Origin: Serendipita indica DSM 11827
Lineage: Eukaryota > Basidiomycota > Agaricomycetes > Sebacinales > Serendipitaceae
Assembly: GCA_910890315.1 (NCBI GenBank)
Contig: CAJVGD010000016.1
Span: 423,646-487,645 of the forward strand
Reading direction: 5' to 3'
Length of the DNA stretch: 64,000 nt
Under the pieces are notes generated by a model. It saw only the letters and a list, made by a program, of their open reading frames with translations, ran no database searches and was not told where the DNA came from. This document shows, in pieces, positions 10,490 through 62,800 of the stretch (position 1 is the first letter of the stretch; each line of letters opens with the position of its first letter). A program made the translations under genes and the position numbers.

Positions 10490-13400
10490 CTAAGTCCCAA
10501 GATTGACCCGAATCATCATTTGAGTGACAGAGGGATCGAGAGGCGTCTGAATAGACTGAACGATAATCAGTTCTATAACGGGTACAACTGTTAGAAAAAC
10601 CTTTCGGTCACTAACCAGTGTCTGGATCCCACAGGCAAATGGTACCGTCTGATGAACCGGATATAATTTTCGAGCCATCTTTGGTGAATATAACACTACG
10701 CACTGGCCCAGTGTGACCTCGAAGTGGCTCTCCTAGAGTCTGACCCGTTTCTATGTCCCACAACCGGATCGTGTGGTCAGATGAGCCAGAGGCAATTCGA
10801 AAGCCGTCCGGCGAGAAGGCAACGGTGTTCACAAAGTGCCCATGCCCTCGGAGTGGCTCTCGCAGCAGCTGACCACTGGTCACATCCCACAACCTTATGG
10901 TATCCCCCGACGAGCTCGAGGCGATTTGTAAGCCATCTGGAGACCAGGCGACAGCTGTGACTGAGTGGTTGTGACCTCTAAATGGTGTTCCTAATGGCTG
11001 ACCGGTCTCTACATTCCATATCCAAACTGTATTATCAGTGGAGCCGGAGGCGATTTGTGAGCCATCTGGTGAGAATGCGACCGTGCAGACCCAGCCTTGG
11101 TGACCTCGCAGTGGCTCTCTCAGTAATCGACGCGCATTTGCTTCCCATAGACAGATTGTGCCATCCTCCGAGCCAGAGGCAATCCGTGAGCCGTCTGGTG
11201 AGAATGCGACGGTGTACACAAAGCTCTCATGACCTTGAAGCGGCTCTCCATGCGGTTGACCGGTGAATACATCCCAGAGACGAACCGTCTCGTCTGCTGA
11301 GCTAGAAACAAGTCGAGTCCCGTCTGGAGAAAAATCCACGGCGTAGACCGGTCCTTGATGCCCTTGAAATGGACTCCCAAGTGATTGGCCAGTTCTTATA
11401 TCCCATATTCTAATCGTGCTGTCGGACGAGCAAGAGGCGATCCGTGAGCCATCAGATGATAAGGCAACGCCATATACATCGTGTTCATGGCCTCGCAGTG
11501 GCTCCCCGAGTGGCTTGCCAGTCTTCGCGTCCCACAGGCGAACCTTCCTATCCCATGAACCCGAGACAATTCGTGTACCGTCTGGTGAAAATACGACGGC
11601 TTGGACCGAACCTTCATGCCCGTGGAGTGGGTTTCCCAACTGCTGACCGCTGATTACATCCCACAGTCTAATCGTCTTATCTTCCGAGCCAGAGACAATA
11701 TATGAGCCATCTGGTGAAAATGCCACAGTATGCACTTCACCCTCGTGGCCTTGGAGTTCTCCTATTGGCTGGCCATTTTCAGCGTCCCATAATCGAACAG
11801 TGCTATCTGCCGAGCCGGAGACAATCCTTGAACCATCTGGAGAGAGGGTTACAGCGTCAACCGAGTCTTCGTGGCCCTCTAATGGCTCTCCCAGTAGCTG
11901 GCGAGTGCCAGTGTCCCACAACCGAATTTTGCAGTCCAACGAGCCTGAGATAATCTGCGACCCATCTGGAGAGAATGCGATTGCACAGACCGAATCTTCA
12001 TGGCCTTCTAATGGTTCACCCAGTGGCTGACCATTATCCACATCCCACTGTCGAATTGTTCCATCCCACGAGCCAGACGCAATCTGCGAGCCATCTGGGG
12101 AGAAAGATATAGAGTAGACAGGTCCTTGGTGCCCCTCGAGCGGAACTCCCAGTGTTTGACCACTATCTACGTCCCACAAGCGGATTGTGGCGTCGAAAGA
12201 ACCAGATGCAATTTTAGTACCATCTGGTGAAAACGCAATGGTATTCACTCCTTTTGAGTGGCCTTGGAGTGGTGGACCCAAAGGTTGGCCAGTATCTGCA
12301 TCCCACAGTCGGATTGTCTTGTCTTGCGAGCCAGAGGCAATTTGCAACCCGCCTGGTGAGAATGATACTGTCGTCACTGGACCTTCGTGGCCTTGTAAAG
12401 CTTCCGGAAGTCCATGGTAAGTTTCCTCGAGACCGTGTGTAACAGCAAGGGTGTTAGGGTAACTCTTTGCATTCTCTATGCAGAGATGTGATGCTGTGGG
12501 AGCGAAAGGAAGAGCTGAAAGGTAAATATGTGGGGTGCTGTCTTGGATGGGTACTGAAAATGCCATCATAAACCGTCGTATCTCTACAATACGACTTCTC
12601 GTACATTCCCCGAGCTATCTATAGTGTGAGTAATCAGTAGGTCTGAACTTTAATGAGTACTCACCGCTTTACAGTACATAAGATCCCGGAGACCGACTGT
12701 CGCTCGTGAGAATCCGCGGGTGAGACTTAAAATCTCTATCCAGTACAGCACATGTGGGCTTCTTATGATATAAATCAACTCGTTCTTGAGTTTATGTCTC
12801 CATTCGTCATCTGTTTGGGCCATATGGAACAGCCAATGATGGCTGGCATATCGGAGTCTTTTGGGAATCAACTTCGATATCCTGGCCTCGAGATCTGGTA
12901 TCTCCCTATTGAGGTGAAATGACGACTTTATATCACATATGTTGAACTTGAGACCCTCTGTGCGCGACTTTAGGCGCTTGACACACCACAGCGCAACTTG
13001 ACCATGTGCATTGGTAGTATTGAGGTACAATTGTCTTCGCTTCTCGACCGTAGCAGCAATACTGCACCGTCGAAGGTACTCGACAAAGGTGGGATGCCGA
13101 AATTCAATCTGTTGTGTATTCCTGTCCTGAACGAGCACACTTCCCAGATTACGTACTAATGCCCTGGCACTCCCGGAGGCTCCAACTTGTCTTAGGATAT
13201 CGTCCAAGTCATCGACTGTAAGCGGTTCAAATGCAGCGAGCAGTAACGTGAGCATTTCGCATATGACTGGGTAGAATTCCGCGTCTATGCGCTCGAAGAC
13301 GAGGTCGTACAGGCCGTCTATGACTCCAGTTGGATATATGCAGATAAGGCGATCATATACACTCTCAGGAGTGCTGAAGTTGGTTTCGCTATCAAGCATT

Positions 13401-14987
13401 CGGCATGCGGTGCTTGCCCATATAAACAGTCCGTTAGCCTTTTCCACGATTCGTTGCCTCTTTTCTTCTGGTAAGACTCCATGGAGCGAGCGATGTACAT
13501 AAAGAGCAATATCATCAATATTGTCTTGATGATTGACGCTGTGCAGGCGATCTTCCAACTTTGTTTTAATCGAGAGGGAGTGCAAAGCTGATTCAATGAT
13601 AGGATCTGGTCGACTTGTGATGAAGAGCCTGAGGTTCTCGCTCTCCCGAGCAGCGACAGAAAGTATGTCGATGAGCTCTTTTCGTTGTGATCCGGATTTG
13701 CATTCATCGATTGCGTCTACGACTAGAATCACGCACTTCCGCCAGTGATGAAGTGGGGCTGTGATGAGTATCCGAAACTGCTCATCGAGTGAGCTCCGCA
13801 TGATGGCAGGATTTAGCTTTACGGCCATAGCTATATGCGGAGCGAGCTCCGGAATGTGATGTGCCAGCTCTCGGGCAACCGTCGAGCAGAACCTGTCGGT
13901 GGTCGACGCCTCGCTGCTTGATATGGAAAAAAAAAACTGGCCACCGAGCCGCCGCTCCTTCCGCCAAGTTTCTAGTACGGAAATTGCGACTGTGGACTTG
14001 CCAGATCCTGCTATATCACAGAGCCAGAAGATGGGTTTAATCCGCTTATCATCATCGGCCCACCGTCGAATCGTCTCAAAGACTTCCTTGCGTGTTCCTT
14101 CCATACATGGTGTATGGACGGAGGACGCGACGAATGTCACCATTGGCAGCTGGAGAATGGTGGAAGCGTCAACTTGGGTCGATTAGCGAGATTTTGGTTG
14201 GCAAGTTAGAACATACAGTCTGTTTGTATTGTTTCGATATTTGAATTGATTATCTTGGTATTGGTTTCGATGGCTTGAGCACGGTATGCGGTGAAAAGAC
14301 TTAGCGACTCCTACCCTTGCACTGAGTTTGCTTTAAGCGTTCCCCGCGAAACGCGTACCATGAACTGCCTGTGACCATCCTCGATATCCCGGTTGAGCTT
14401 AAATATGACTTCTACATCGACCTTGACTTTCCGTATATCCCTAAACAAGGAAGAGAATACACGGCCTCGTTTCTCGGTTTGAACACTGACAGTGCTAAGA
14501 ATGTCCTCGAGGAGCCTGGAACAGGTAAATATGTCAAACTGAATGAGACATGTTTACGTACTCGACGTAATGAACGAGTGGTCGGGCGAATGCCTCATCG
14601 ACAGCTCTATTCTCCGGCGGATAAGCCTCGAATAAGACGATTTGGCCTTCAATGTTGGACATATAATCTTGCAGGCGCCGCATTAGATTAGTCCATTCTT
14701 CTCGGTTATCGTCAACCGCCTGTATATTAACTTAAACAACTGCCGTCGGGGTATTACGGACCCACCTGTCTGACCTCGAGAATCGATTTTGTTGTGCGAC
14801 AGGCTGCTTTGAGAGGTGCAAGTATATCCGACGCTTCGGATATATTCGCCACTACATCAAGGCCGATATTGGTCATGTCGTATACCTGACTCCTCCTACT
14901 CGACGATCGTTGAGAAGATGGCTCAGATGCCGATAGATTTACGATCTGATCTGGTTCCTTGGCCGTTTTTGACTTTTGGGACGACAT
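10490..14987 (-). CDS. NLR-like STAND protein: helical N-terminus, NACHT, 14 WD40 repeats
   Basis: Complete NACHT-WD40 receptor-type NTPase, the class that acts in fungal non-self recognition and programmed death. Start MSSQKSKTAKEPD at 14987. Exon 1 (to 14766) and two following exons (from 14719) encode a helical N-terminal domain (ILAPLKAACRTTKSILEVRQ; MRRLQDYMSNIEGQIVLFEA). The exon before NACHT splices at an AAG about 14177. NACHT has FWLCDIAGSGKSTVAI (Walker A) and CVILVVDAIDEC (Walker B). An intron at 12664-12615 leads into ...VEIRRFMMAFSVPIQ and then 14 WD40 units of about 43 residues (x-GHxxxVxxxxFSPDG...IRLWD), enough for two seven-blade propellers. A last short exon ends VNLGT at 10490. 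The reading frame is intact throughout. The similar repeats suggest repeat exchange, as in HET-E-type proteins. Confidence 0.92.
10620..12420 (-). repeat. Fourteen tandem WD40-coding units, about 129 bp each
   Basis: In-frame repeat within the NLR. Units open with L-x-G-H (LQGH, LEGH, LRGH, FRGH) and close with R-L-W-D. Conserved core positions alternate with variable positions, which is the pattern expected of ligand-facing residues. Repeat count is likely to vary between strains. Confidence 0.85.
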
Positions 14988-36600: not shown

Positions 36601-39600
36601 CTACAAGCCATGAGAAGACTGCGCAGATTTGATCTTTCCTAGAAGTTGGATCGCCCATTGAGTATGACGATGATGTTCACCAAGGATCTCGCGGCGTAGT
36701 TCGATTGTGCCTTCTAAGAGCTGCAAAGCCTCTTCGAACCGTCTCTGGAGATATAGTGTATGGGAAAGATTGTAGGTCGCATTGAGAGTATCCGGGTGCC
36801 GTAGTCCAGAGACCTCAAGCCACAGAGCAAGCACGTCTCGCCCCATCTTCTCGGCTTCACCAAATTGACCAAGCCTACGCAAGGTGCCCGCGAGGTTGCC
36901 CATGGCTAGGATGGTGTCAGGATGGCGTGGTCCAGAGACCTCAAGCCACAGAGCAAGCACGTCTCGCTCCATCTTCTCGGCTTCACCAAATTGACCAAGG
37001 CTACCCAAGGTGCCCGCGAGTTGGCCCATGGCTACGATGGTGTCAGGATGGCGTGGTCCAGAGACCTCAAGCCGCAGAGCAAGCACGCCTCGCTCCATCT
37101 TCTCGGCTTCACCAAATTGACCAAGGCTACCCAAGGTGAGCGCAAGGTTGCCCATGGCTACGATGGTGTCAGAATGGCGTGGTCCAGAGACCTCAAGCCG
37201 CAGAGCAAGCACGTCTCGCTCCATCTTCTCGGCTTCACCAAATTGACCAAGGCTACCCAAGGTGAGCGCAAGGTTGCCCATGGCTACGATGGTGTCAGGA
37301 TGGCGTGGTCCAGAGACCTCAAGCCGCAGAACATGCGTATCTCTCTGCATCTTCTCTGCTTTGCCGAGTTCACCACAGCACCAAAGCGCTTCTCCAAGTC
37401 TGCTCATTACCAACATGGTGTCAATATGCCTTTCTCCTTGGCATCGCTGGACCTGTGCGAGTGAGCATTCTAACAGCTTCCAGCATGTGTTCCAATTTCC
37501 CAAAGAATCGTAAAAATCGTTGAAAACCAATGTATGTGCTAGATTCTCCGATTGCGTCGATAACGGGACGCTGTTAGCATGTGGTAGCAGTTGCCAAAGC
37601 TCCACATTGCTCCCTGGTGCTGGTCGAATTGCACCAAGCAATAATTGTGCCGTCATCCGAATATAATTCTTTTTGTCCTCTACGACAAGCGAATCCTGGA
37701 TGTACATCTGCAGCAGAGGATGAACCGCGTAGAACAGGCCGTCTGTTGTAACGTTGATAAGTGATGCCCGCAAGGCCGCGTTGATGATCTCCTGGAACGA
37801 AACCTCGTCCCATGTCTTGCCAAATATCTCCTCAAGCTTTGACCTAAAAGTCTTGTCACTTGCCGGCGGAGGACAGCTTTTCTCGACGGTGTGCGTGGTG
37901 AAGCCAGAGGTTATCGACCTCTCAAAGAGAGACAGCGGAATGAGTGAGTGATGGAGGAATGCGCATAGCTTCAAGAACTCTTGCGTCGTTTTCTGTAATC
38001 GATGGAATGATAGGTCGAATGCAGTGTATGTCGATGACGTGTATTCGGAGTCGAGATCTAGCTGCTTGCTTAGAAGTCGGTCCCGACTTTTCCGAAACGT
38101 GTCTAGGTATGTACTCAGGCGCTTTGTGTCGCGAATGTACACGCCTGCCTGAGTGATAGCGAGCGCCAGCATCCCTAGCTCCTTCACAATCTCGAGCGAA
38201 TCGGCGCTGGATGCAGGTGCAATATCAGCAGTTGTGTGAAGCAGGTTGATCGCTTCGCTTTCCTCACGACCACCAACAGGCACTGCGCCATCTTGAGCGT
38301 ATTTGGTGCACTGTCTGTTTCTCGTAGTGATGAGAATCGCGCCATCAACCGATCTAGGGAGATATGGGCGGAGATCGAGGTCTGGCGAGTCGGCATTGTC
38401 GATAAAGAGCAGCCACTTCTTTTCCTTGTAACCAAGATGTTCGACTGCGTCTTTTCACGTCATCTTGCTGTACTCAGAACCCAAGCACCGGATTGAACGT
38501 TGTAGGTCTGCTTCCAGCTGGGCCTCGCTCGTGGCGTCGACGAATATCACCCGATTGAAGCTAATCAACGATTAGATATTGCGCAGACACAATAGCGAAC
38601 ACATACCGGCTCTCATTCTCTTGAATCCAGTTTGTTGCGAGCTGCGTCTTTCCCGCACCTCCAAGCCCGTGTAGTATACACCGTGGCTGGTGCTTCACTG
38701 GGCCATCCGGCAGAAGCTTCCGCGTGATAAGAGACTGGAAATGAATTCGCTCGATGTAGCCTCTTGATACAGGTGGACGGGGTTTCGGCATGATCACCTC
38801 CTCAGGAATGGACTCTCCCTTCGAAACACCTGCACATCAGTCAGACGAGCACTGAGCCTGAACTAATACCAACCACGGTGAGCATCCTCCTTGACCCACT
38901 TCTCCTTCACCTGTACAGCCGCGTCGTCGACGTACTCTCTGAGATAGTGGAGAACTGTTTGATAGTTGTCCTGATCTTGAACAGCAAATCTGACCAGATC
39001 ACGGTGGTCGGTATGGAGTACAATCGCCGTTGCGTTTGGATCGCCAGCAATCACAGCCGAGGAGTACGAAACATTCTAATTTTTGCGTGAGCCGACAGTC
39101 CCAAATGATACAGATACGCATCATTCGTCCATTCGTATACTCTGCGGAGAAGAAGACGGTGTGGATATTCGTACTTGCCTGAACATAGAGACTCTGTATA
39201 TTCTCGAGTTCAGACGAGTGAACCCGAAGATCTTTGGGGATGGTGTCCGTCGTCTCCATATACACCGAGGCCACGCGGGTGACTTGTTCAAGAAGAGAGG
39301 TGTCGGTGCCAGAGTGGGGAGTTCCGAAGAAAAGGATCGCATGGGTGGAGGTCAGAAGGTCGCGAAGGTCGCATTTTGTTTCTAGTCTTTGATTATGGCA
39401 GATCACCAGCGCCTGTCGATGGTCAGCGACTTGTTTCGATGAGAGCGGATCTGGGGCTACAGACCCATTTGAGGATGATACCTCCTAGATCATGCGCTAC
39501 GAAGATGAAGGGTCGCTAATAGCGTGTCAAATGACTTTCTGAATGACGGTTCGGCACTCACTCGAGGATGGTCCTTGCGTCTCCTTGCGAGCGCTCTGGC

Positions 39601-43025: not shown

Positions 43026-43607
43026 CGAGAAATACCCATTACCGAGAAACCTCCTTTTTCTCCAGCTAGAACACGCATATTGTCTCGCGCCTTTTAATGT
43101 AGATAAAGTAGATATATGGCAATATTTTGGACCTCGGCGCTTGATGCTATGCCTCGCTTCGCCGGCCCGACGACCCGCTTTACAGCCAATCCGCGTTGTG
43201 TGCTGCCTGTAGATCGCTGCTGTGCACCTAAACCTATACCGCACGATTTCCATACACAAACCAATGTAAAAAAGTCATGATTGATTTCTGGGAGGTTTAC
43301 CTGTGCGCCCGATGGCTATGGCGCCGCCCTGCCGATCATTGTGGTGGCACTGTTTAAATGCCATGTCCTGCATGTTTGAGGGCTCTTGGTCATACCATTC
43401 TAGTCTGAAGTTACTTTAAACGTGTTGGTGGTCACAGAGTGTCCATTCTCCGTGCGTCCAATTGCCAAAACAACAGATAGGCGATGACTGACTGCCGGTG
43501 ACAGTTTCAGTGCCAGTTCTATCAATCATGTCTCTCCAAAGGGTTCACGGATATATATAAGGGCTTATATTAGCTGTCTGCTGTTTAGATTAAACTCATT
43601 GCCTAGT
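43026..43607. other. Left flank of the pogo transposon, ends not resolved
   Basis: Should contain the 5' terminal inverted repeat of the transposon. I compared it with 46035-46280 by eye and found no clear inverted match. Confidence 0.35.
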
Positions 43608-46034
43608 ATGAGCGCTCCTCGTCCCTCTCCATCTCTGGCCCCACGCGAAGCGGCCCGTGCAAACGAGCAGCGTATTCAGGCTGCAATAGCCTTTATAGAG
43701 CATAAAAAAGCTCAGGGAGTGCAAGTATCTGTGAAACAGGCCGCAATTATGCACGGTGCTCCTCCATCGACTGTGGCTGCTCGCCTAAAAGGTCGCAAAA
43801 CGCGCCAAGATGCCCATGTACACCGACAAACCCTTGGTCCCGAGGAGGATAACGTCCTCGTTGATTGGATTATCTTCTGGGGTGGCAAGGGAATACCACT
43901 AAATCCCAATCATGTTCGGGCCAAAGCCGTGGCAATCTCGGGCCAGGATGTGGGGAAGCATTGGATTGACCGCTTTAAAGATCGACACTCAGATAGATTA
44001 AAGTCGACATGGACACAACCTATTGAACATTCCCGTGCTAAAGCCGTTAACCCAGCCGTGGTTCACGACTTTTATGAAAAATTGATGGCGGAAGTGAATA
44101 ACTCGGCTATTCCTCAGAAGAATATTTATAATGCAGACGAAAAAGGTGTTCAGTTTGGCGAGGACGAGCGGTCCAAGGTCTTGGTGGAGCAAACTCAGCG
44201 TAACACACGTATGATCCATGACAAACATCGCGAGATGGCAACTGTAATCGAGTGCATATGCGCCGATGGAACCGCTATTTCACCTATGGTCATATTCAAA
44301 GGGAAGCGGATGTCAAAGCTTTGGTTCACCCAGAATTTTGGTGGAATGAGCCCAGTGTGAGCAAGCAGATACTTAAAGTTAGCATTTCAACTTACTCTAT
44401 TTAGAATAGCAACATCATCTGAAGGATGGACAGATCAAGAGCTGGGCGCGTTGTGGATGGAGTGATGCTTCGAACCAGAAACAGCTATCCACAGCGACCC
44501 TCAGGCCCCGCGCCTCCTTATAGTTGATGGCCATAACTCTCATACAGCATATCGATTTCTTGAATATGCCAACAGATACGATATCATTGTCCTTTGCCTC
44601 CCACCACACACCACACACACCCTTCAGCCATGTGATGTCAGTGTATTTGGTCCATTATCACAATCATGGCGCTCTGTGGTCAGTGAGAATGCTACTAAAG
44701 GCATTCAGGTGACAAAATACAACATGCTCGGGCTGTATGCCGAGGCACGAGCAGCCTCATTCAAGGAGGAGACAATTCAAAAGGCATTTCGCAAGACAGG
44801 GATATGGCCTGTAAACAAGGATGCATTGCAGAGCTCAGATTTTGAGCTATCACTGGCGACAACAACAGCGGTTCTTCTCCCAGATCCTGGTAAGATACCG
44901 AAGAATGATTGCCTTGACCAATTCTGATTCTACAACAGACAAAGGCGCCTTAGACTTGCTGGATATGACATTGGAGGCATCAAACAAAGCTATTGGAATT
45001 GTCTAGTTGTCATCCACATCTCCTCATCCGCCTTCCAGCTTGATAGCTGCAGACCCCCCAGTTGAACAAGGTGAGCTAGTGATCCTGGATGTGAATAACG
45101 GCTAAATATGAATTCCAGATAAACTTGAAAGCCATATAGCGGCAAATCCGTCGCAACTTCCAGCAGATCTACAAGATTATGACGTCCCGGCTGCCTTGCG
45201 AGCCTGCTCAATGCCTGCTTTGCCTGACCAGAATGTTGATAGCTCTGTGCTAAGGAGTCGCATTCGCGAGTATGAGCAGGTTATAGCAGCACAGTCTGCT
45301 CAACTGATGGTGAGCGCCACCTGGAACAAGCTGTTCCATTTGGAGAATGGTCAGCTGCGTCAAATCGCGCTCAAGAAAACCACGCGACAGAAAAACAAGT
45401 TCCTTAACACAAAGGCACGAGTTATGACATCTCCAGAGGGCCTGGACGAAATCAAGGCAGACGAAGAGAGGCGAGCCGCAAAGGCAGCAGAGAAGGCAGC
45501 AAAGGCAGTGGCCCGAGCAGAAAAGGCTGAACTTAAGGGTAAAAGGGGTACTGGAGGACAGAAGGGCCAAAAAGTGCGATTCCAGGTCAAGGACAACACC
45601 TCTGATACGGCATCTGATGCAGCCACCTCCGACTCGGACACTGATAGGCTCAGCAATGCACAACCCACCCATCGCACCACACGCTCAGGACTGTCTGCAA
45701 AGTCTAACAGCACTGGATTGCATGCAGATCCATCAAAGGCACCCCAGGCGGCAGCACAAGATACCCCTGTCACCCTGCGTCGCGGACGGTCAGCTACCGC
45801 TCAGAAGGAGAGCCCAAAAAGGCTATCTACTGGTATTAAGTCGGGTTCCTCACAAATATTGGCTCTGGAAATGCTGCCACCCCTAATACAGTCGGCGTTT
45901 CCATGACAGGAGCCAAAAAGACGCAAGGAAAGCGGTTTAAACGGCCTAATCCTATGCACGAGATCTCTTACGAAGAAGATGATGACTTCTTTGTTTTGAA
46001 TCCGGCAGCTAGGAAACGTAACAGAGGATTATAG
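43608..46034 (+). mobile_element. Pogo/Fot1-type DNA transposon, transposase with two nonsense codons
   Basis: Cut-and-paste transposase of the Tc1/mariner-pogo class. An N-terminal HTH pair (RIQAAIAFIEHKKAQG ... GAPPSTVAARLKG; then the CENP-B-like GPEEDNVLVDWIIFWGGKG) is followed by DDE_1: IYNADEKGVQFG (first Asp), LLIVDGHNSHTAYRFLEYAN (second Asp), LPPHTTHTLQPCDVSVFGPL (third Asp), IQKAFRKTGIWPVN. A basic coiled region and a C-terminus ending ARKRNRGL (TAG 46032) complete it. The catalytic triad is present and introns are short and in phase. TGA at 44463-44465 and TAG near 45003 break the frame, so this copy is not autonomous. The element is larger than the CDS, but its terminal repeats were not located. 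Confidence 0.88.
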
Positions 46035-47461
46035 CAAGTTGGAGGCATTCCAATGCCACTTAGTCAATTTTGTCGCTATCCTTTATCTATCATATTTTTT
46101 TCTGAACTTTTGAGAGAGTTTCCAGGCTCTGAGCTTGGATACAAGTTTTCTCGGTGGCCCGGGACGCATGCTTCCAAGCGCCGGTCAGCACAGCCCCACA
46201 CCTATTGCCACCGAACCTTCGCCGCCTCGTGCATTGATAGAGTGGACAATAAATGATATAAAAACCCAGAAAAGCAAGCCCGGTGATCTATTCTACCCTT
46301 GTTAATGCCAAAAGAGCTTAACCTTCTCGCTAAGGGGGTATGGACAGTATCGCTTCATACTTCATTTTTGATATTTATATTGTTTATTTAAGTCTGGACA
46401 TTTCAAACCCGTAACATCAATGCTTCGTAACAGCGATAAGCCGCAACAGTAAATATGGTGGCCTTATGTGATATTCCCGTAGAGGAGTCACTTGTCCAGG
46501 GTCCCTGCGCTCCCGAGTGAGTAGAACTAAAGGAGATCACCTGTCTGATTGCATTAGATTGACAAGGTGGGGAGTAGATGGATGGAGCGAGGGGGGTCTA
46601 AGGCAGATAGTCAAGTCTATGTTCTTTCAATGTCGTTTCAGTGACGATTTGATAAGAGTGAACGATGAGAATAAGGGGCTATATGTAGATGACGACAGTG
46701 GATCAAGGATCTGAGGAGAAATTTGGTGAGAATCTCGATTACTATGAGACAAAAGAGAGAGGTTGATGTGTAATGACGACGGCTCCCAGATGGGCTGCAA
46801 GGGCGACGAGGCCCACGCTCGGCACCTTGCACCATAGTAGTCAGCAATGGTTTCTACAGTGAGTAGACGTTGAAGAGTGCGTGAAACAGATGAAGAAGAC
46901 GATTAGGAGCGGAGGCGTCAATGTCGCTTGCTCAACGAACGAATTACAGAACAGTTGTAATGTCAGATGTAGGAGATGAAGAAGGGTACAGTCGTCGACG
47001 CTATTAACGTCGCGGATTATGACGGGAAGCGGCCGGATTTCATATACAAGTTATGTCTTATCCCGCACGCTCTCATATGAGAGCAAAGACAAATCTGTTG
47101 GCGAATTGAGGCCTATAACACAGTGTATAATGGCAAGTCACCGCAAAGATGGCTGCCCAAGCGCGGTAGTACAGATAGCGAGAAAATCGAACTCAATTTG
47201 AGAAGGCATTGTCGCCCTGAACGGCAATGTATATGAAGTTAACGAGCTAAGCATTGTCATATCTATCCTGCATAAACTTTCCTTCCTGCTCAGCTTGTGG
47301 AGGGAACGATCGAACCACGCAGTTTCGTGAAAGTATCGAAGATACCACGTCACTACTAATGCAAAATACGTAGCTGAACTGAATAATTCATCAGGTCCTA
47401 TGCCAAAGCTGCTGTAACACTGACCTGGGGAGAATTGGTGGCGGGGCTATGTACCTTTACT
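46035..47461. other. Right flank of the transposon and left flank of the pheromone region
   Basis: No gene recognised. The part from about 47160 resembles 48805-49030 and belongs to the segmental duplication around the pheromone genes. Confidence 0.4.
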
Positions 47462-47587
47462 CTAGGCAACAACACAGTATTGAGGTGTGCCACCCCATCC
47501 GTTTTCCATGTCCTTGACATTATCGATATCTTGTTCCTCTGGAGTAGTGTCGAAAGCAAAAGTGTTAGGAACGACAAGGAATTCCAT
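47462..47587 (-). CDS. Mating-pheromone precursor 1 (C-A-A-X)
   Basis: A 41-codon intronless gene. Starts MEFLVVPNTFAFDT, has an acidic middle (PEEQDIDNVKDMENG), and ends TPQYCVVA, where CVVA is a farnesylation C-A-A-X box. This layout (very short, acidic propart, C-terminal C-aliphatic-aliphatic-x) is that of basidiomycete lipopeptide pheromone precursors, which are cleaved near the middle and farnesylated. It is paralogous to the gene at 49091-49213 (shared EEQD, DNVKDME, QYCVVA). A TATA box sits at 47683-47690. Expected partner: a STE3-type receptor, not seen in this window. Confidence 0.88.
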   Translation of the reverse strand: MEFLVVPNTFAFDTTPEEQDIDNVKDMENGWGGTPQYCVVA

Positions 47588-47682
47588 GAGAGCTAATGCG
47601 TTGGGGTGTAGTTACGACGTTTGCAGGTGAATCCGGTGGTGGATAGGAGGCGAGGTGAGGGGTTGGGTGAATGTTCGGTGGC

Positions 47683-47690
47683 CTTTTATA
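47683..47690 (-). promoter_or_regulatory. TATA box of pheromone precursor 1
   Basis: Minus strand TATAAAAGG about 96 bp before the ATG, followed by CCACC. The same TATA-plus-leader pattern precedes the other two pheromone genes. Confidence 0.7.
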
Positions 47691-48030
47691 CAGAAACGGG
47701 TGAAAGTCGGGCGGCCATATACAGGAACAGCGCGTCATTCCAATGCAAGCATGGCACTTGGAACTGTGTATCACACAGTTTCAGAAAAGGTGGTCGTTGT
47801 CTGTGCGACGGAGGTACGGGTCCTCCAGCTAACCAAATCTCTCGTCGTCTATTCATCACTCTACATACTGGCAATGCAATTCTCCATTACAGCCTAAACA
47901 ACGGTCGCCGATGCCCATATTTCTCTCGCCTCTTCATCCTTGGCAGTATCACACTCGCCAGGGGTCAGCACATTCAGTGTGATGCGAGAATTCCGTGAGT
48001 GGCGGATAGCCAGGGCAGTGACACGGAATT

Positions 48031-48069
48031 TGTTGATACTAGGACACGTGGGGGAGAGTCAAGACCGGT
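48031..48069 (+). mobile_element. Solo-LTR start fragment
   Basis: TGTTGATACTAGGACACGTG followed by a short decayed match to the start of the 156-bp LTR family; the rest is missing. Confidence 0.5.
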
Positions 48070-49090
48070 TTGGTATGTCGCATGATACTAGCTCTCAGCA
48101 ATTGATGTACCTCATCTTAGCATCATTCGTACCTAGACTTGAGGAGCATCGTGCCACATGAGCTTTGCTTTGTGAATCCTTCACCATCTGGTGCGCGATG
48201 TATATTTCAATATGATCCGCATCGGACGGAAAGTAGAATGCCCAGATGCCAAGCAAGGAACGCTGTTTCATCGAGCAACCTATCCAGGAACAGCTACCAA
48301 GGGAATTCCGCGAGAAGCGGAGATGAGATCCCGAGCGAGAGGAAAGGCACTCAAGGCCTGTGTAGAGTCTCTCTCTTTGTATTCCGTTGTTGGATGACCG
48401 TGGACCATCCATTTGGAATTTCACTCTTCGATACCTAACCAAGCGAACATCCCAAAGTTGAAAAAGTTGATGTCACGCAGTGTACTGCTGTGCTGTATGA
48501 CATGGGCACGACTACAAGGCCCTCGCCCGACGAGATACAGCCCGCCATCGTACACGACCTCCTTCATTTCACCGTTTCGGCAAAAAAGGTCCCATTCTCA
48601 GTATAATAAAGACCAAAGGTACAAGTTTGGAAGTAGGAATGATTTGTACAAGCCGTCTGCTGCACCACACCTGTTTCCCCTCACCATTTCGCCGTCACTT
48701 TTGCAAGACTTTCTTGTATGAGTTCCATCACCCATTCATATCCACCTTATTTAGTACCTTGAGGTTTCATGCGAGGTACATTACAGATGAGTGACGGGCA
48801 TAATGGCGCACATGGCAAGCAAATTCAACTCAATCTGAAGATATTTTTCACCGCAAACGGCGAGGTATTTGGGTTAATGAAGTAGAAATTGATATATTTA
48901 TCCGACATAAAAACTCCATTGCTCCGCTTGCCGAGGGAATGTATCGCACCCTGCGGATTTATGGGAATCTAGAAGATATGAAGCATTCTCGATTGAATTA
49001 GGTTGAACTGAATAATGCATCAGGGCCTCTACTGAATGCTACCATGAGACTCACCTGAGAAGAACTTGTGATAGAGGTATGTATCTCCAC

Positions 49091-49213
49091 CTATGCAACG
49101 ACGCAGTATTGACCTCCATTGCTGCTATCTCCTTTCTCCATATCCTTGACGTTGTCAAGATCTTGCTCCTCTGGCATAGTGTCGAATGTTAAAATTTTAG
49201 CGAAGAATTCCAT
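49091..49213 (-). CDS. Mating-pheromone precursor 2 (C-A-A-X)
   Basis: A 40-codon intronless gene: MEFFAKILTFDTM, PEEQDLDNVKDMEKG, ending SNGGQYCVVA with the CVVA farnesylation box. Paralogue of precursor 1 by segmental duplication; the propart is well conserved, while the residues before the Cys differ (SNGGQYC versus GGTPQYC), which is where receptor specificity resides. TATA box at 49331-49337. The frame is intact with no nonsense, in contrast to many neighbours, suggesting selection keeps it. Confidence 0.88.
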   Translation of the reverse strand: MEFFAKILTFDTMPEEQDLDNVKDMEKGDSSNGGQYCVVA

Positions 49214-49330
49214 AGCGTTGAAAAAGAGCTAATGCGCTTTTGATAGAGTGTAGTTGTCAAGTTTGCAGGCGAATCTGGCGATGGATAGGATATGAGGTGA
49301 AGGACGGTTGGGAGAGAAATTTGGGTGGCC

Positions 49331-49337
49331 TTTTATA
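49331..49337 (-). promoter_or_regulatory. TATA box of pheromone precursor 2
   Basis: Minus strand TATAAAAGGCCACCC, about 118 bp before the ATG, nearly identical to that of precursor 1. Confidence 0.7.
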
Positions 49338-49546
49338 CAGAAAATACACCTCATTCCGATGAAATTTGGGAACCTGAAACTATGCGTCAGAAAAAGGGAG
49401 TCGTTGTCTCTGCCACGGATGTCAGGTAGAGTCTGGCCGCCCTCAACCGCCTTCGGCAATTATATTCACCCATATCCCCTCTAATTAGCACATTTACAGA
49501 TCACGGCCGAAGCAATGGTCGCCATAGTCCACTGCTTTTGCATCCT

Positions 49547-49727
49547 GTAACGTTTAGCCGTGGGAAAATGGAACAAGCCGCATTCGCACCGACTTAGCCG
49601 TCAGACCACTAGACTATAGTGTCCCTCTTTTCCCTCTAAAGCGTCACAGTACCTATGACCCTCGTTACTCAGATATTCCTAACCTGGTCGGCCGGGCTCT
49701 GACCTGTAAGGTGAGCCAATCCTTACA
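49547..49727 (-). mobile_element. tRNA-derived SINE-like element, copy 3
   Basis: 181 bp, flanked by CATCCT duplications (49541-49546, 49728-49733). Same A-box/B-box arrangement on the minus strand as the copy at 29378. Inserted in duplication unit 2 upstream of pheromone gene 2. Confidence 0.82.
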
Positions 49728-49733
49728 CATCCT

Positions 49734-51455
49734 CTCCGACTTTGGCTGTATGACAGTTTAGATGCGAACTATTGAATGCAGATTTCTCATTTCCTGGCTT
49801 CTCCATCTTAAGGCAGTGTATTGACGAGGTCCGCATAGCTTTCCACACGTACACCGTGGCATGGGCGATATCTCCCTATTTATTGTCGGCAATTGCGTTG
49901 CTACATAGTCCAATGTGAACGGAGGTATGCCAAGATTAGAGAGATTGATCGTTGGAATCGTTTACTTGTGGAGATCATCAGGGTCGGCGCATCCAGTGTG
50001 GCGTGAGAATTCCGTGAGCAGCGGATATCCGAGTTGGCGACACAAAAGGGGCAGGGAGTTTCAGCTGCGCATGGAAGTACGTTTTGTCCATTTCTTGCCC
50101 TAGTCTGACTCTCACGCTCGGCATCGCAACCTCTTGCCTACACGCTGCGTTATACTTCCCAAAATGTGTGGTTTACTGAATTTGGGGCAATGTAAACAAT
50201 CTTACGTCTCTCACCTGTAGAATGTACTCAATAAGCATCGGAAAGCGTGAGCCTGTACACCAAAAACAACTGGCCGGGGTCTCTGGACATATAATTGATT
50301 GGGACTCAATGTAGCAGAGACAGAATTAATCAAACGTAGATATGAGAAGCCCAAAGGAAGCGAGCAGGACGAATGAAGTGCGAAATACGATCTATGACGG
50401 GCACCTCAAGCCGTTGGCTATGGTTCAAAATATGTCCTTGGTTTCCAAACTGATCGATCATAACTCGATCCTTTAATGTCAAATTTTCACCATAGCTAGT
50501 AATATCATTGCATATTCCTGAATGCTTGGTTTCAAAGTACGGTCCAATTGGGAGAATCACCGGCTATCACCGCGGTAGTGCTGCCCTAACATGACGCGAG
50601 GGTGAAATTGCACCCAAATAAAACTATGTATCATTCCTTAACCGTCAGAGCGCAACATGATCCGCCCCAGACGGAGCCAAGGAGATCAAACGTAAACCTC
50701 ATTGAAAGACAGGCTAGTCTCCAGGGCAAGCATTGCTAGTGCACTCACACTCATACGGCTGGGGCTATGGCGGCCCCGTGAGAACGGAACTCAAGGATGG
50801 CGGTGCCTACAGAGGCGAAGGATCGACAAAGGAGATTCGAACTAGCCCCTACAACCTGCTCTGGTTCACATTCGACCTAAGCTCTTCGAGAGAATACATC
50901 TCGTCTCGACTGGAAATACGTCAGTTACCAAGAACTTGAGGGGTGGATATATGGACGCCTGCTGGCGAATCAATGAAACAACGCACTTTCAGCACTCCAG
51001 ATTCGAAGCGTTGCTGTCAATGCTTCATCATTCATGAATTCGCCTTTGTGAATAGAACTAGGCCCTTGCGCTGGACAGGAAGCGTCTCACACTTAGTGAG
51101 AACATAAATTCAACAAGGAGGCGAAAAACACGGATTAGGAGGCCTTTTTCGATTATCGTACCGCATTTTGAGTCTCAGGATAGCCAAATAGATGAATATA
51201 TTTATGATATTGCTAAGAACGGCCGAGCGATGCCATGCATGCTCGATGTTTTGCTTACAAGCTGAAAATAGCGGGTAGAGTAGTCGGTTTGGCGCAAAGA
51301 ATATCGTATTCTCATGAATAGAAAACAAGGAGTCAACTGAGGCGACCAAACAAGCTAGCCAACTTTTGACTGATGCACCGCACGTGCATTTCTCAAACAG
51401 CGGGTTTCAGACTTATCAGGCGTCGAAATTAGAATGGGAAAATATTGTTTGTGCG
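49734..51455. other. Spacer between pheromone genes 2 and 3, no receptor gene seen
   Basis: Checked for a STE3-type receptor (seven hydrophobic stretches) on both strands; none found. Short frames only. Confidence 0.45.
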
Positions 51456-51464
51456 CATAAAAGG
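51456..51464 (+). promoter_or_regulatory. TATA-like box of pheromone precursor 3
   Basis: CATAAAAGG followed by CGACCC, about 104 bp before the ATG at 51568. The downstream leader (CCACTCGCCTCC, AGATTCACCTGCAA) matches the leaders of precursors 1 and 2. Confidence 0.65.
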
Positions 51465-51567
51465 CGACCCAAACTTCGCTGTCACCATCCACCCACTCGC
51501 CTCCAGCCCAGTGCCAGATTCACCTGCAACTCTCACATCTCCGAACTCTCACCTTCAACTTGAACCT

Positions 51568-51684
51568 ATGGAATCCTTCTTCATTCTCGAACTTTTGACT
51601 GTCAAGATGACCAAGGACGATGAACAAGATTCCAGAGATTTCGAACAATCAGGTGGCTGGAACAGTAGTTGCGTCGTTGCATAA
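51568..51684 (+). CDS. Mating-pheromone precursor 3 (C-A-A-X), opposite strand
   Basis: A 38-codon intronless gene: MESFFILELLTVKMTKDDEQ, acidic middle, end GGWNSSCVVA with a CVVA box. It is more diverged than precursors 1 and 2 but shares the start (ME-x-F), the D-E-Q acidic motif, the C-terminal box and the promoter/leader pattern. It lies on the plus strand 2.3 kb from precursor 2. The distinct residues before Cys suggest a different receptor partner. The frame is intact. Confidence 0.85.
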   Translation: MESFFILELLTVKMTKDDEQDSRDFEQSGGWNSSCVVA

Positions 51685-59834: not shown

Positions 59835-62800
59835 ATGCAGCGCCGAAAAGCCAAAGGAAATCAGAATCCGACTCCCTCAAATTCATCAAGGGCAAATACG
59901 CCTTCTCAAGACCCAGACGTTGCTTATCAGCGAACACGGGACACCCTCATCGAGGCCGTCAAGCTTGTCAACGCGGGGACCGAGGCTACTTCATTTCTGG
60001 GACCCCTTAAAGCAGTTTGCGAGATTTCCCTTCTATTCCTTGAGACAACCAGGGTACGACACGCTTAGCGTCAATGCTGAGTTTCGATCTGATTACGCCG
60101 TAGACCGTCAATGAGAATACCAAAGGGCTCAAAATACTCAGGGATAGTCTTGAAGCACATATATCCATCTTGGATGAAGGATATCTCCAAGCTGTCGAGG
60201 ATGGACGTACGGACCAGATGCCCGAAGCGCTCAAGGATTTCAACAATGCATCGAGAGATTACATTGGGTAAGCTCTGAGGTCGAGCTCTTGAATGTTTGG
60301 CTGAAATTGTGTAGCGCTCTGAAAGGCATACTCGCTAAAATTGACGAGTTGAAGCACGGCAGAGATCAAGGCGTCAAAGGATTTCTCAGAAAGTTCACGG
60401 ATTCCAAGATCGACATCGGAAATATTGCAGACTACAAACAGGAAATCGCACATGCTACGCGCGTATTCGAGGTATGAGTACAACTTCAAGCCCAGTTTCG
60501 TATTGAGCTATTTGCAATAGGATGCGACCAAGTTCTGTCAAATTCAGCTGCAAGCAGAAGGTTAGCTCGATTCATGTCACTCTCCACCTCGTATTGATTC
60601 CCTACAGTGTGGAAAGTAGCCCAACTCGGGCCCGAGAAGCCTCGTCCGATGGAGATTCAGCACAAGACATGTCTACCAGGCACACGCGTCCAGATTCTGC
60701 AGGAAATTCGGCAATGGCGTCTGGACCCTATTGCAGACAAGCGCATCTTTTGGCTCTGCGATGTTGGCGGTTCCGGGAAGTCCACAGTCACACTCACGAT
60801 GTGCAAGGAATGGGATAATACCAAAGATGTTCTGGCTGGTCGGTTCTTCTTTTCGAAGAATGCTCGACAGACATCGGAGACGGATGATTTCTGCTCTGTC
60901 TTCGCGGAAGATATTGGTGCTCGAAACAAGATAATCTTAAAGCAAATAAAGATGATCAAAGAAGAAGATCCTCACCTTCTCGGGCGAGGACTGTATCATC
61001 AGTTCGCCAAGCTGATCGAAGAACCCTTGCAGCTTGCAACCACGGATATTGTCCTCGTGATTGACGCAGTGGATGAATGCAAAAAGAAGATGAGGGGAGA
61101 GTTGATCGAACTACTGGTCGAGAAGCTTTCATCGATGCCCAAACTCAAACTCTTTATAACGAGCCGGCCGGAGCCAGACATCGTCGCGATACTCCAGGGT
61201 AGAGCGATTGTACGCGGAATGCATTTCAAGATGCACGGCAAAGAGCAGCAGTCCAACTTGGATGACATTAGGGCCTACGTCGACGTCCATCTTGTCGACC
61301 TGCTTACCGAGCCTCAGCGCTCGCAGATTGTAGAACGCTCGAATGGACTTTTCATCTGGATCACGACAGCACATCTTGAGCTACAACAGGCTCAAGGTCC
61401 GGCCGCTGTTGGCACGACTCTCAAATCCCTCTTGACGCGAGGGCGAGGGCGGATGGATCAGATCCGTGATCCGTTCGTCGATCAGATCCGGTGTCAACGA
61501 AGGCTCTGGAGGAGATGACTGGGATTGCAGACTCTGAGCTAAGGCTGATCTTACGATCGATGCAGAGTGTATTTCGGGTGGAGAGGGTAGTAGAGTTTCT
61601 ACATCCGACCTTTCGGGAATACCTTCTCAGTCCATACAACGTGGATATGCCATTCGACTCGACATCAATACAATCAGATTTGGCCATATCTGTCCTCACA
61701 GTGCTTCAGAAGGATCTAAAGGAGGATATCTGCGGCATTTCCGTGCCAAATGAACCTTATCCAAGGAATGCGGACGTCATGGATCTGGATAAACGTCTGG
61801 AACGATTATGGACAAGTTTCCCGGCATTACGTTATGCGGCAAAGTACTGGGGCTATCATGCATCCACCGTCGTAATGGAGGAACATGTGGTCCGGCCGCT
61901 GCGAATGTTTTTAGAAAGTCAAATTTTGTACCTCGTGGAGCTGTTAAGCTTGATGGGTCACATACATCTTATTCGAAATTTCGAAGAGATACGGCAAAGT
62001 TGTGCACACCAAAGATTCAGTGATGAACTTGAGGTGAGCTCGTGCTACATATGATATGCGTATTGACCATGGTGACAATAGGTATGCCATGATACAGTTA
62101 GACTTGTCCAGAGGCATCAAGAAACATTAGAGAAGAGTGCACTGGATATCTATTCATCAGGGCTACTATTCCTCCCTCGAAAGTCGCAACTGTGGACAAT
62201 GTACAAGAGCAAGTTTTCAGATAGACTACCAAAGATCATTGGAGAACCATCAGCGCACTGGCCTTCACACCAAATTTTGACTGGACATACCCGCACTGTC
62301 CAGTGTCTGGCCTTCTCGCCAGATGGGCGCCGTCTTGCGTCTGGATCTCGGGATCGCACTGTACGCCTGTGGGATGGGACCACCGGTGCAAGCCTTGGGA
62401 CGCTCGAGGGACATACCGGTTCTGTCCAGTGCCTGGCCTTCTCGCCAGATGGGCGCCGTCTTGCATCTGGATCTGGGGATCACACTGTATGCCTGTGGGA
62501 TGGGACCACCGGTGCAAGCCTTGGGACGCTTGAGGAACATACCAATTGGGTCGAATGTCTGGCCTTCTCACCAGATGGGCACCGTCTTGCATCTGGATCT
62601 GGGGACCGCACTGTACGCCTGTGGGATGGGACCACTGGTGCAAGCCTTGAGACGCTTGCGGGACATACCGGGCCTGTCCGATGTCTGGCCTTCTCACCAG
62701 ATGGGCACCGTCTTGCATCTGGATCTGGGGATCGCACTGTACACTGTGGGATATCACCACCCCACCCAGTTTGGAACCTCCTTATGAGCTCAATCATGTT

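What the first reader, a model, noticed from the sequence alone, without database searches (positions are those of the whole stretch)
47462..51684. Three unlisted-size mating-pheromone precursor genes
Genes of 41, 40 and 38 codons end in C-V-V-A, share an acidic propart and a common TATA-leader architecture, and are intact while neighbours decay. They are too short for most gene callers. They mark a pheromone (P/R-type) mating locus or satellite of it, with no receptor within the window.
Basis: partly seen in the sequence, partly recalled or inferred. Interest (0 to 1): 0.75.

Follow-up and report, generated by a model that had tools for sequence, protein, structure and literature searches.

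The report
Orphan lipopeptide pheromone genes, Serendipita indica
Three tiny, real genes for pheromone-like peptides sit near the end of a contig of a root-symbiont fungus; they belong to a family of about a dozen such genes scattered away from any receptor gene found, so they resemble the known 'non-mating-type' pheromone peptides rather than marking the mating locus.

Summary
The three ORFs (41, 40, 38 codons, all ending C-V-V-A) are real: randomised windows give 0.007 such ORFs on average, the window has 3. A promoter profile built only from paralogues outside the window picks out these three promoters and nothing else below E = 13. The genome is almost certainly Serendipita (Piriformospora) indica. 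A genome-wide pattern gave 65 stop-terminated C[VIM][VIM]A sites; by my reading 15 end intact pheromone-like ORFs. Eleven form one promoter-sharing family (the window's three, eight on C5, C7, C40); two more lie on C1; only the last two lie beside STE3 receptors (C13). No STE3 match lies on the window's contig (487,645 bases); the nearest to any of the 13 dispersed genes is about 264 kb away. [quoted passage not shown] Best reading: receptor-unlinked, non-mating-type lipopeptide pheromone precursors, duplicated and dispersed, mostly under purifying selection. Caveats: the cluster is 12 kb from a contig end, so a receptor beyond it cannot be excluded; expression and receptor are untested. New members of a known kind; the expansion, in a fungus reported without a sexual stage, is mildly surprising.

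The parts
47462..47587 (-). pheromone precursor gene a (41 aa, ends CVVA)
   Evidence: paralogue of gene b, dN 0.21 / dS 1.58 over 39 codons
49091..49213 (-). pheromone precursor gene b (40 aa, ends CVVA)
   Evidence: 64% identical to gene a in the alignment
51568..51684 (+). pheromone precursor gene c (38 aa, ends CVVA)
   Evidence: matches the C40 paralogue at E = 1e-4, 51% identity
47621..47698 (-). promoter/leader of gene a; TATA 17-mer at 47677-47693
   Evidence: HMM from paralogues outside the window, E = 8e-5; joint top-ranked TATA site
49234..49369 (-). promoter/leader of gene b; TATA 17-mer at 49324-49340
   Evidence: E = 4e-8; joint top-ranked TATA site
51407..51563 (+). promoter/leader of gene c; TATA 17-mer (CATAAAAG) at 51453-51469
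   Evidence: E = 5e-15; third-ranked TATA site
47100..47461 (-). 3' flank of gene a, alignable to that of gene b (limits approximate, by eye)
   Evidence: pairwise alignment
48750..49090 (-). 3' flank of gene b, counterpart of the above (limits approximate, by eye)
   Evidence: pairwise alignment

Best explanation
[quoted passage not shown] By established knowledge of this class, the CVVA tail would be farnesylated, trimmed and carboxymethylated, the acidic N-terminal part cut off about ten residues before the cysteine, and the glycine-rich peptide exported to act on a STE3-type receptor encoded elsewhere in the genome. They are members of a 13-gene receptor-unlinked set (11 sharing one promoter type, 2 others on C1) spread by tandem and dispersed duplication, and are unlikely to determine mating type. 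Shown: ORFs, family, shared promoter, codon-position bias, no linked receptor found. Inferred: processing, export, receptor, role.
For: Chance excluded. Core promoter and leader shared with paralogues on C5, C7, C40; among all loci fetched so far the eight-member promoter HMM (E <= 0.05) hits only members or broken copies of this family. Third codon positions take the excess of differences: a/b 19 of 32 (p = 0.002), four pairs 57 of 98 (p = 4e-7), all six pairs compared 101 of 193 (p = 4e-8). Of 65 stop-terminated C[VIM][VIM]A sites (65 of the 90 hits, counted), 15 end pheromone-like ORFs; 13 of 15 have no STE3 match within about 264 kb or none on their contig. The ten residues before Cys hold 2-5 Gly in 13 of 13, as described for A. 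bisporus, C. cinerea and L. bicolor non-mating-type peptides (PMC8305134, passages). One of 15 members matches Pfam Mfa1 (mating factor) weakly, E = 0.01.
Against: No transcript evidence. The classical ER/EH pair is absent from the three; other charged pairs (KD, EK, RD) lie 10-13 residues before Cys. None of 15 members matches Pfam PF08015 at E <= 1, though a published pheromone also escaped Pfam (PMC5755439, passages). One of the two receptor-linked C13 peptides also has 2 Gly, so the Gly criterion is soft. Two family copies on C5 are broken. The cluster lies 12 kb from a contig end.
Confidence: 0.75

Rival explanations
1. The cluster is part of, or a satellite of, a P/R mating-type locus whose receptor lies beyond the end of contig C16.
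For: The window ends at the contig's last base, 12.3 kb beyond gene c. Contigs C36 (93 kb) and C43 (170 kb, match at its end) carry STE3; their shared stretch is 99.2% identical over 3,360 bases, so I count one locus. Their neighbours are unknown.
Against: 471 kb on the other side hold no STE3 match. The same promoter family lies on C5, C7 and C40 without a close receptor. A P/R-like arrangement exists on C13, without this promoter type.
Confidence: 0.12
2. Relics: former pheromone genes dispersed with repeats and now drifting.
For: Repeat and transposase nearby. Two broken family copies on C5: one at C5:42-630, 91% identical to the C7 gene, one near C5:12.35 kb with family promoter but no CaaX end.
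Against: 15 intact frames; a/b coding gaps are multiples of three; third-position excess; promoters conserved.
Confidence: 0.08
3. Short farnesylated peptides with a role unrelated to STE3 receptors, for example inside the cell or towards the plant host.
For: Receptor unknown; 13 unlinked precursors against six STE3 loci.
Against: The architecture is that of pheromone precursors; no positive evidence for another role.
Confidence: 0.05

Closest known systems
[quoted passage not shown] tail consensus also given for Coprinopsis cinerea and Laccaria bicolor; PMC8305134, passages seen)
   Same: Short CaaX precursors, glycine-rich tails; in A. bisporus scattered and without linkage to receptors or the mating locus.
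   Different: A. bisporus has four of 44-54 aa; here 13 of 35-41 aa, 11 of them with one promoter type; tail sequences differ.
B mating-type (P/R) pheromone precursors (Rhizopogon PMC5473757, Pleurotus ostreatus PMC13108863; passages seen)
   Same: Size class, acidic propart, CaaX tail; in Rhizopogon about half were missed by annotation.
   Different: No STE3 found nearby; no ER pair; members resemble each other.
The two C13 peptides of the same genome (one is PIIN_00191)
   Same: CVVA tail, 39 and 43 aa.
   Different: 0.4 and 2.65 kb from STE3 genes; the family promoter HMM finds nothing significant there, although one has a TTTATATA stretch about 150 bases upstream.

Membership tests
Fungal lipopeptide (a-factor-type) pheromone precursor | Short ORF with C-terminal CaaX box | tested here: met
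   41, 40, 38 aa, all CVVA
Fungal lipopeptide (a-factor-type) pheromone precursor | Charged pair (ER/EH) 10-15 residues before the CaaX box | tested here: inconclusive
   No ER/EH; KD (gene a), EK (b) and RD (c) lie 10-13 residues before Cys (read). Criterion from PMC5473757 and PMC8686365; PMC12387193 also counts EE and DR (passages).
Fungal lipopeptide (a-factor-type) pheromone precursor | Match to Pfam PF08015 (Pheromone) | tested here: not met
   0 of 15 members at E <= 1; 1 of 15 matches Mfa1 at E = 0.01 and 1 Olduvai at 0.15. The whole-genome search was empty too, but its controls rang nowhere.
Fungal lipopeptide (a-factor-type) pheromone precursor | Farnesylation, export, receptor activation | not testable with these tools
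   needs experiment
Mating-type P/R locus | STE3 receptor next to the pheromone genes | tested here: not met
   17 STE3 matches in the genome, none on C16; but one side is only 12 kb long
Mating-type P/R locus | Alleles differ between mating types | not testable with these tools
   one assembly, no reads; no second copy of the region found in it
[quoted passage not shown]
   13 genes on C1, C5, C7, C16, C40
[quoted passage not shown]
   2-5 Gly in the ten residues before Cys in 13 of 13; soft, since one C13 peptide also has 2

The most novel reading that the evidence does not exclude
S. indica, in which sexual reproduction had not been detected, keeps a duplicating, promoter-sharing set of receptor-unlinked lipopeptide pheromones that serve signalling other than mate choice, such as hyphal fusion, upkeep of the two-nucleus state, or growth in roots, through STE3 receptors outside the P/R-like locus.
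Probability: 0.25. Interest if true: 0.7.

Novelty: new member of a known kind. Interest (0 to 1): 0.4.

Why it matters
I found no description of the pheromone side of this widely used root symbiont's mating system: the genome paper's main text has homeodomain mating genes but no occurrence of 'pheromone' or 'STE3' (PMC3192844, term search; supplements not read), and the listings of four library searches showed none. Fifteen precursors, 13 of them unlinked to receptors, and six receptor loci would make the open question of what non-mating-type pheromone peptides do directly testable in one species.

Tried and rejected
Chance ORFs: rejected. A second copy of the whole region elsewhere in the assembly: none found; besides the region itself, 35 of the 36 other matches were one short dispersed repeat and one was a 44-base match. 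Rfam and tRNA matches: none. A conserved element upstream of the TATA box: a profile of the more distal 122 bases did not find the window's genes and scored no better than on the reversed window, so co-regulation rests on core promoter and leader. Recalled motifs, 300 bases upstream: the HMG-type ACAAAG is in none of the three window genes (either strand: 5 of 15 genes). The Ste12-type core TGAAAC, either strand, is upstream of all three window genes and one other, in none of the remaining 11; positions differ and a/b are duplicates, so I note it only as a lead. Telomeric position: 11 of 13 dispersed genes lie within 45 kb of a contig end, but no tandem TTAGGG was seen at five contig ends, so 'subtelomeric' is not claimed. 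Four short ORFs near the C40 receptor share one pattern; one reads like a small-GTPase last exon, so I set them aside (impression, not a test). A 57-58-aa CVVA/CIVA pair on C10 was set aside as cysteine-rich. No STE3 phylogeny was made. In leave-one-out 7 of 8 outside paralogues had their own promoter as best hit; for the eighth (L032) the best hit was a neighbouring broken copy, followed up.

Full report
Observation. Genes a and b are an old tandem duplicate (64% identical protein; leader and roughly 350 bases of 3' flank still alignable). Gene c is on the other strand; in the three family searches it was found by the C40 query (E = 1e-4) and not by the other two.

Genome. The window is C16:423646-487645 of a 24.7-Mb, 55-contig assembly and ends at the contig's last base. 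The species is inferred: the C7 and one C13 peptide are identical to PIIN_07385 and PIIN_00191 of Serendipita indica DSM 11827, and the size is close to the published 24.98 Mb (PMC3192844, passages). That paper infers a heterokaryon with two nuclei and states that sexual reproduction had not been detected.

Inventory. The pattern TGYRTNRTNGCNTRR gave 90 matches against 49 for the reversed-pattern control. 25 end in TGG and were dropped; behind each of the 65 true stops I looked at the frame. By eye (35-43 aa, start ME, MN or MD, acidic middle) 15 of 65 are pheromone-like: C16 three, C5 five, C40 two, C7 one, C1 two, C13 two. For one C5 member (L033) the first in-frame ATG gives 90 aa; I took the inner ATG that matches its C40 twin. 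A few other frames of 30-60 aa end in the motif but do not look like precursors. Two further family copies on C5 are broken: C5:42-630, 91% identical to the C7 gene, with frame disruptions (pseudogene or poor contig-end sequence), and one near C5:12.35 kb found by its promoter, whose frame runs on past C-V-V without a CaaX end. Precursors with other CaaX tails could be missed; four single-protein searches added no intact gene.

Receptors. The STE3 family search gave 17 matches on C36, C1 (two places), C13 (two), C40 and C43, none on C16; its control rang in 0 of 14 named genomes. C43 and C36 are 99.2% identical over 3,360 bases, so I count six loci. Only the two C13 pheromones are close to a receptor (0.4 and 2.65 kb). 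The two C1 genes are about 264 kb from the nearest, the C40 genes about 454 kb and 1.9 Mb, and C5, C7 and C16 carry none. C13 is thus the best candidate for the P/R locus; receptor phylogeny and alleles were not tested.

Promoter. Of the 11 family members, 7 have TATAAA, 3 have CATAAAA or GATAAAA and 1 has TGTAAAA, roughly 103-130 bases before the ATG. In hold-out tests with only the eight paralogues outside the window, the three window promoters lead the ranking of TATA 17-mers and are the only hits of the 200-base HMM below E = 13; the reversed window gives nothing better than E = 8.6. Over all fetched loci at E <= 0.05 the HMM hits only family loci (the eight training members match by construction) and the two broken copies. 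The C13 and C1 pheromone loci give nothing significant (best 8.8 on L059, 20 on L009, none listed for L010). A profile of the more distal part alone gave no signal.

Selection. NG86: a/b dN 0.21, dS 1.58; two other pairs 0.04/0.23 and 0.18/0.48; no dS could be computed for the remaining three of six pairs. Third-position differences: 19 of 32 for a/b, 57 of 98 over four pairs, 101 of 193 over all six. The genes are short, the pairs share members, and the null of one third is simple, so these values are rough.

Literature. A. bisporus has four scattered precursors with G-rich mature peptides and four scattered STE3 genes (PMC8305134, passages); Pycnoporus has four mutually similar precursors presumed non-mating-type (PMC4101180, passages); Pleurotus tuoliensis has two pheromone-like peptides on scaffolds other than the two linked to matB (PMC5755439, passages). 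The window's genes fit this kind. PMC8305134 says that the function of non-mating-type STE3-like receptors is unknown.

Verdict. Real members of a known kind; I found no earlier description of this set (listings; annotation names of the window's own proteins are hidden by the tool). The mating-locus reading is not supported but cannot be fully excluded because of the contig end.

Noticed in passing
window 49546-49728: A ~183-bp repeat with 35 further full or partial matches in the assembly, 79-97% identical; its reverse strand resembles tRNA promoter boxes by eye (SINE-like), though ARAGORN and Rfam gave nothing.
   Followed up: partly
window 43488-44924: Tc5-like transposase: HTH_Tnp_Tc5 and DDE_1 in two separate open frames near the pheromone cluster.
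   Followed up: partly
window 10614-14182, 36604-38454, 60598-61515: NLR-like fungal genes: NACHT/NPHP3-type NTPase frames at the first and third place, with WD40 repeats beside the first, and a TPR-repeat protein at the second.
   Followed up: no
L032:2694-2990 (about C5:12.2-12.5 kb): A further family copy with the shared promoter whose frame runs past C-V-V without a CaaX end; found only by its promoter.
   Followed up: partly
L031 (C5:42-630): Frame-disrupted copy of the C7 pheromone gene at the very start of contig C5.
   Followed up: partly
L061, L062 (C10:603405 and 610991): Two similar cysteine-rich 57-58-aa ORFs ending CVVA/CIVA, 7.6 kb apart; not pheromone-like by eye.
   Followed up: no
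L060 (C40:225001-234500): Four similar ORF ends with CVVA/CVVV/CVVT/CSVA tails about 1-1.2 kb apart beside a STE3 gene; perhaps tandem small-GTPase last exons.
   Followed up: no
window, 300 bases upstream of each of the three genes: Each has a TGAAAC core (either strand) upstream, found in only 1 of the other 12 genes; a possible pheromone-response element (motif recalled).
   Followed up: no
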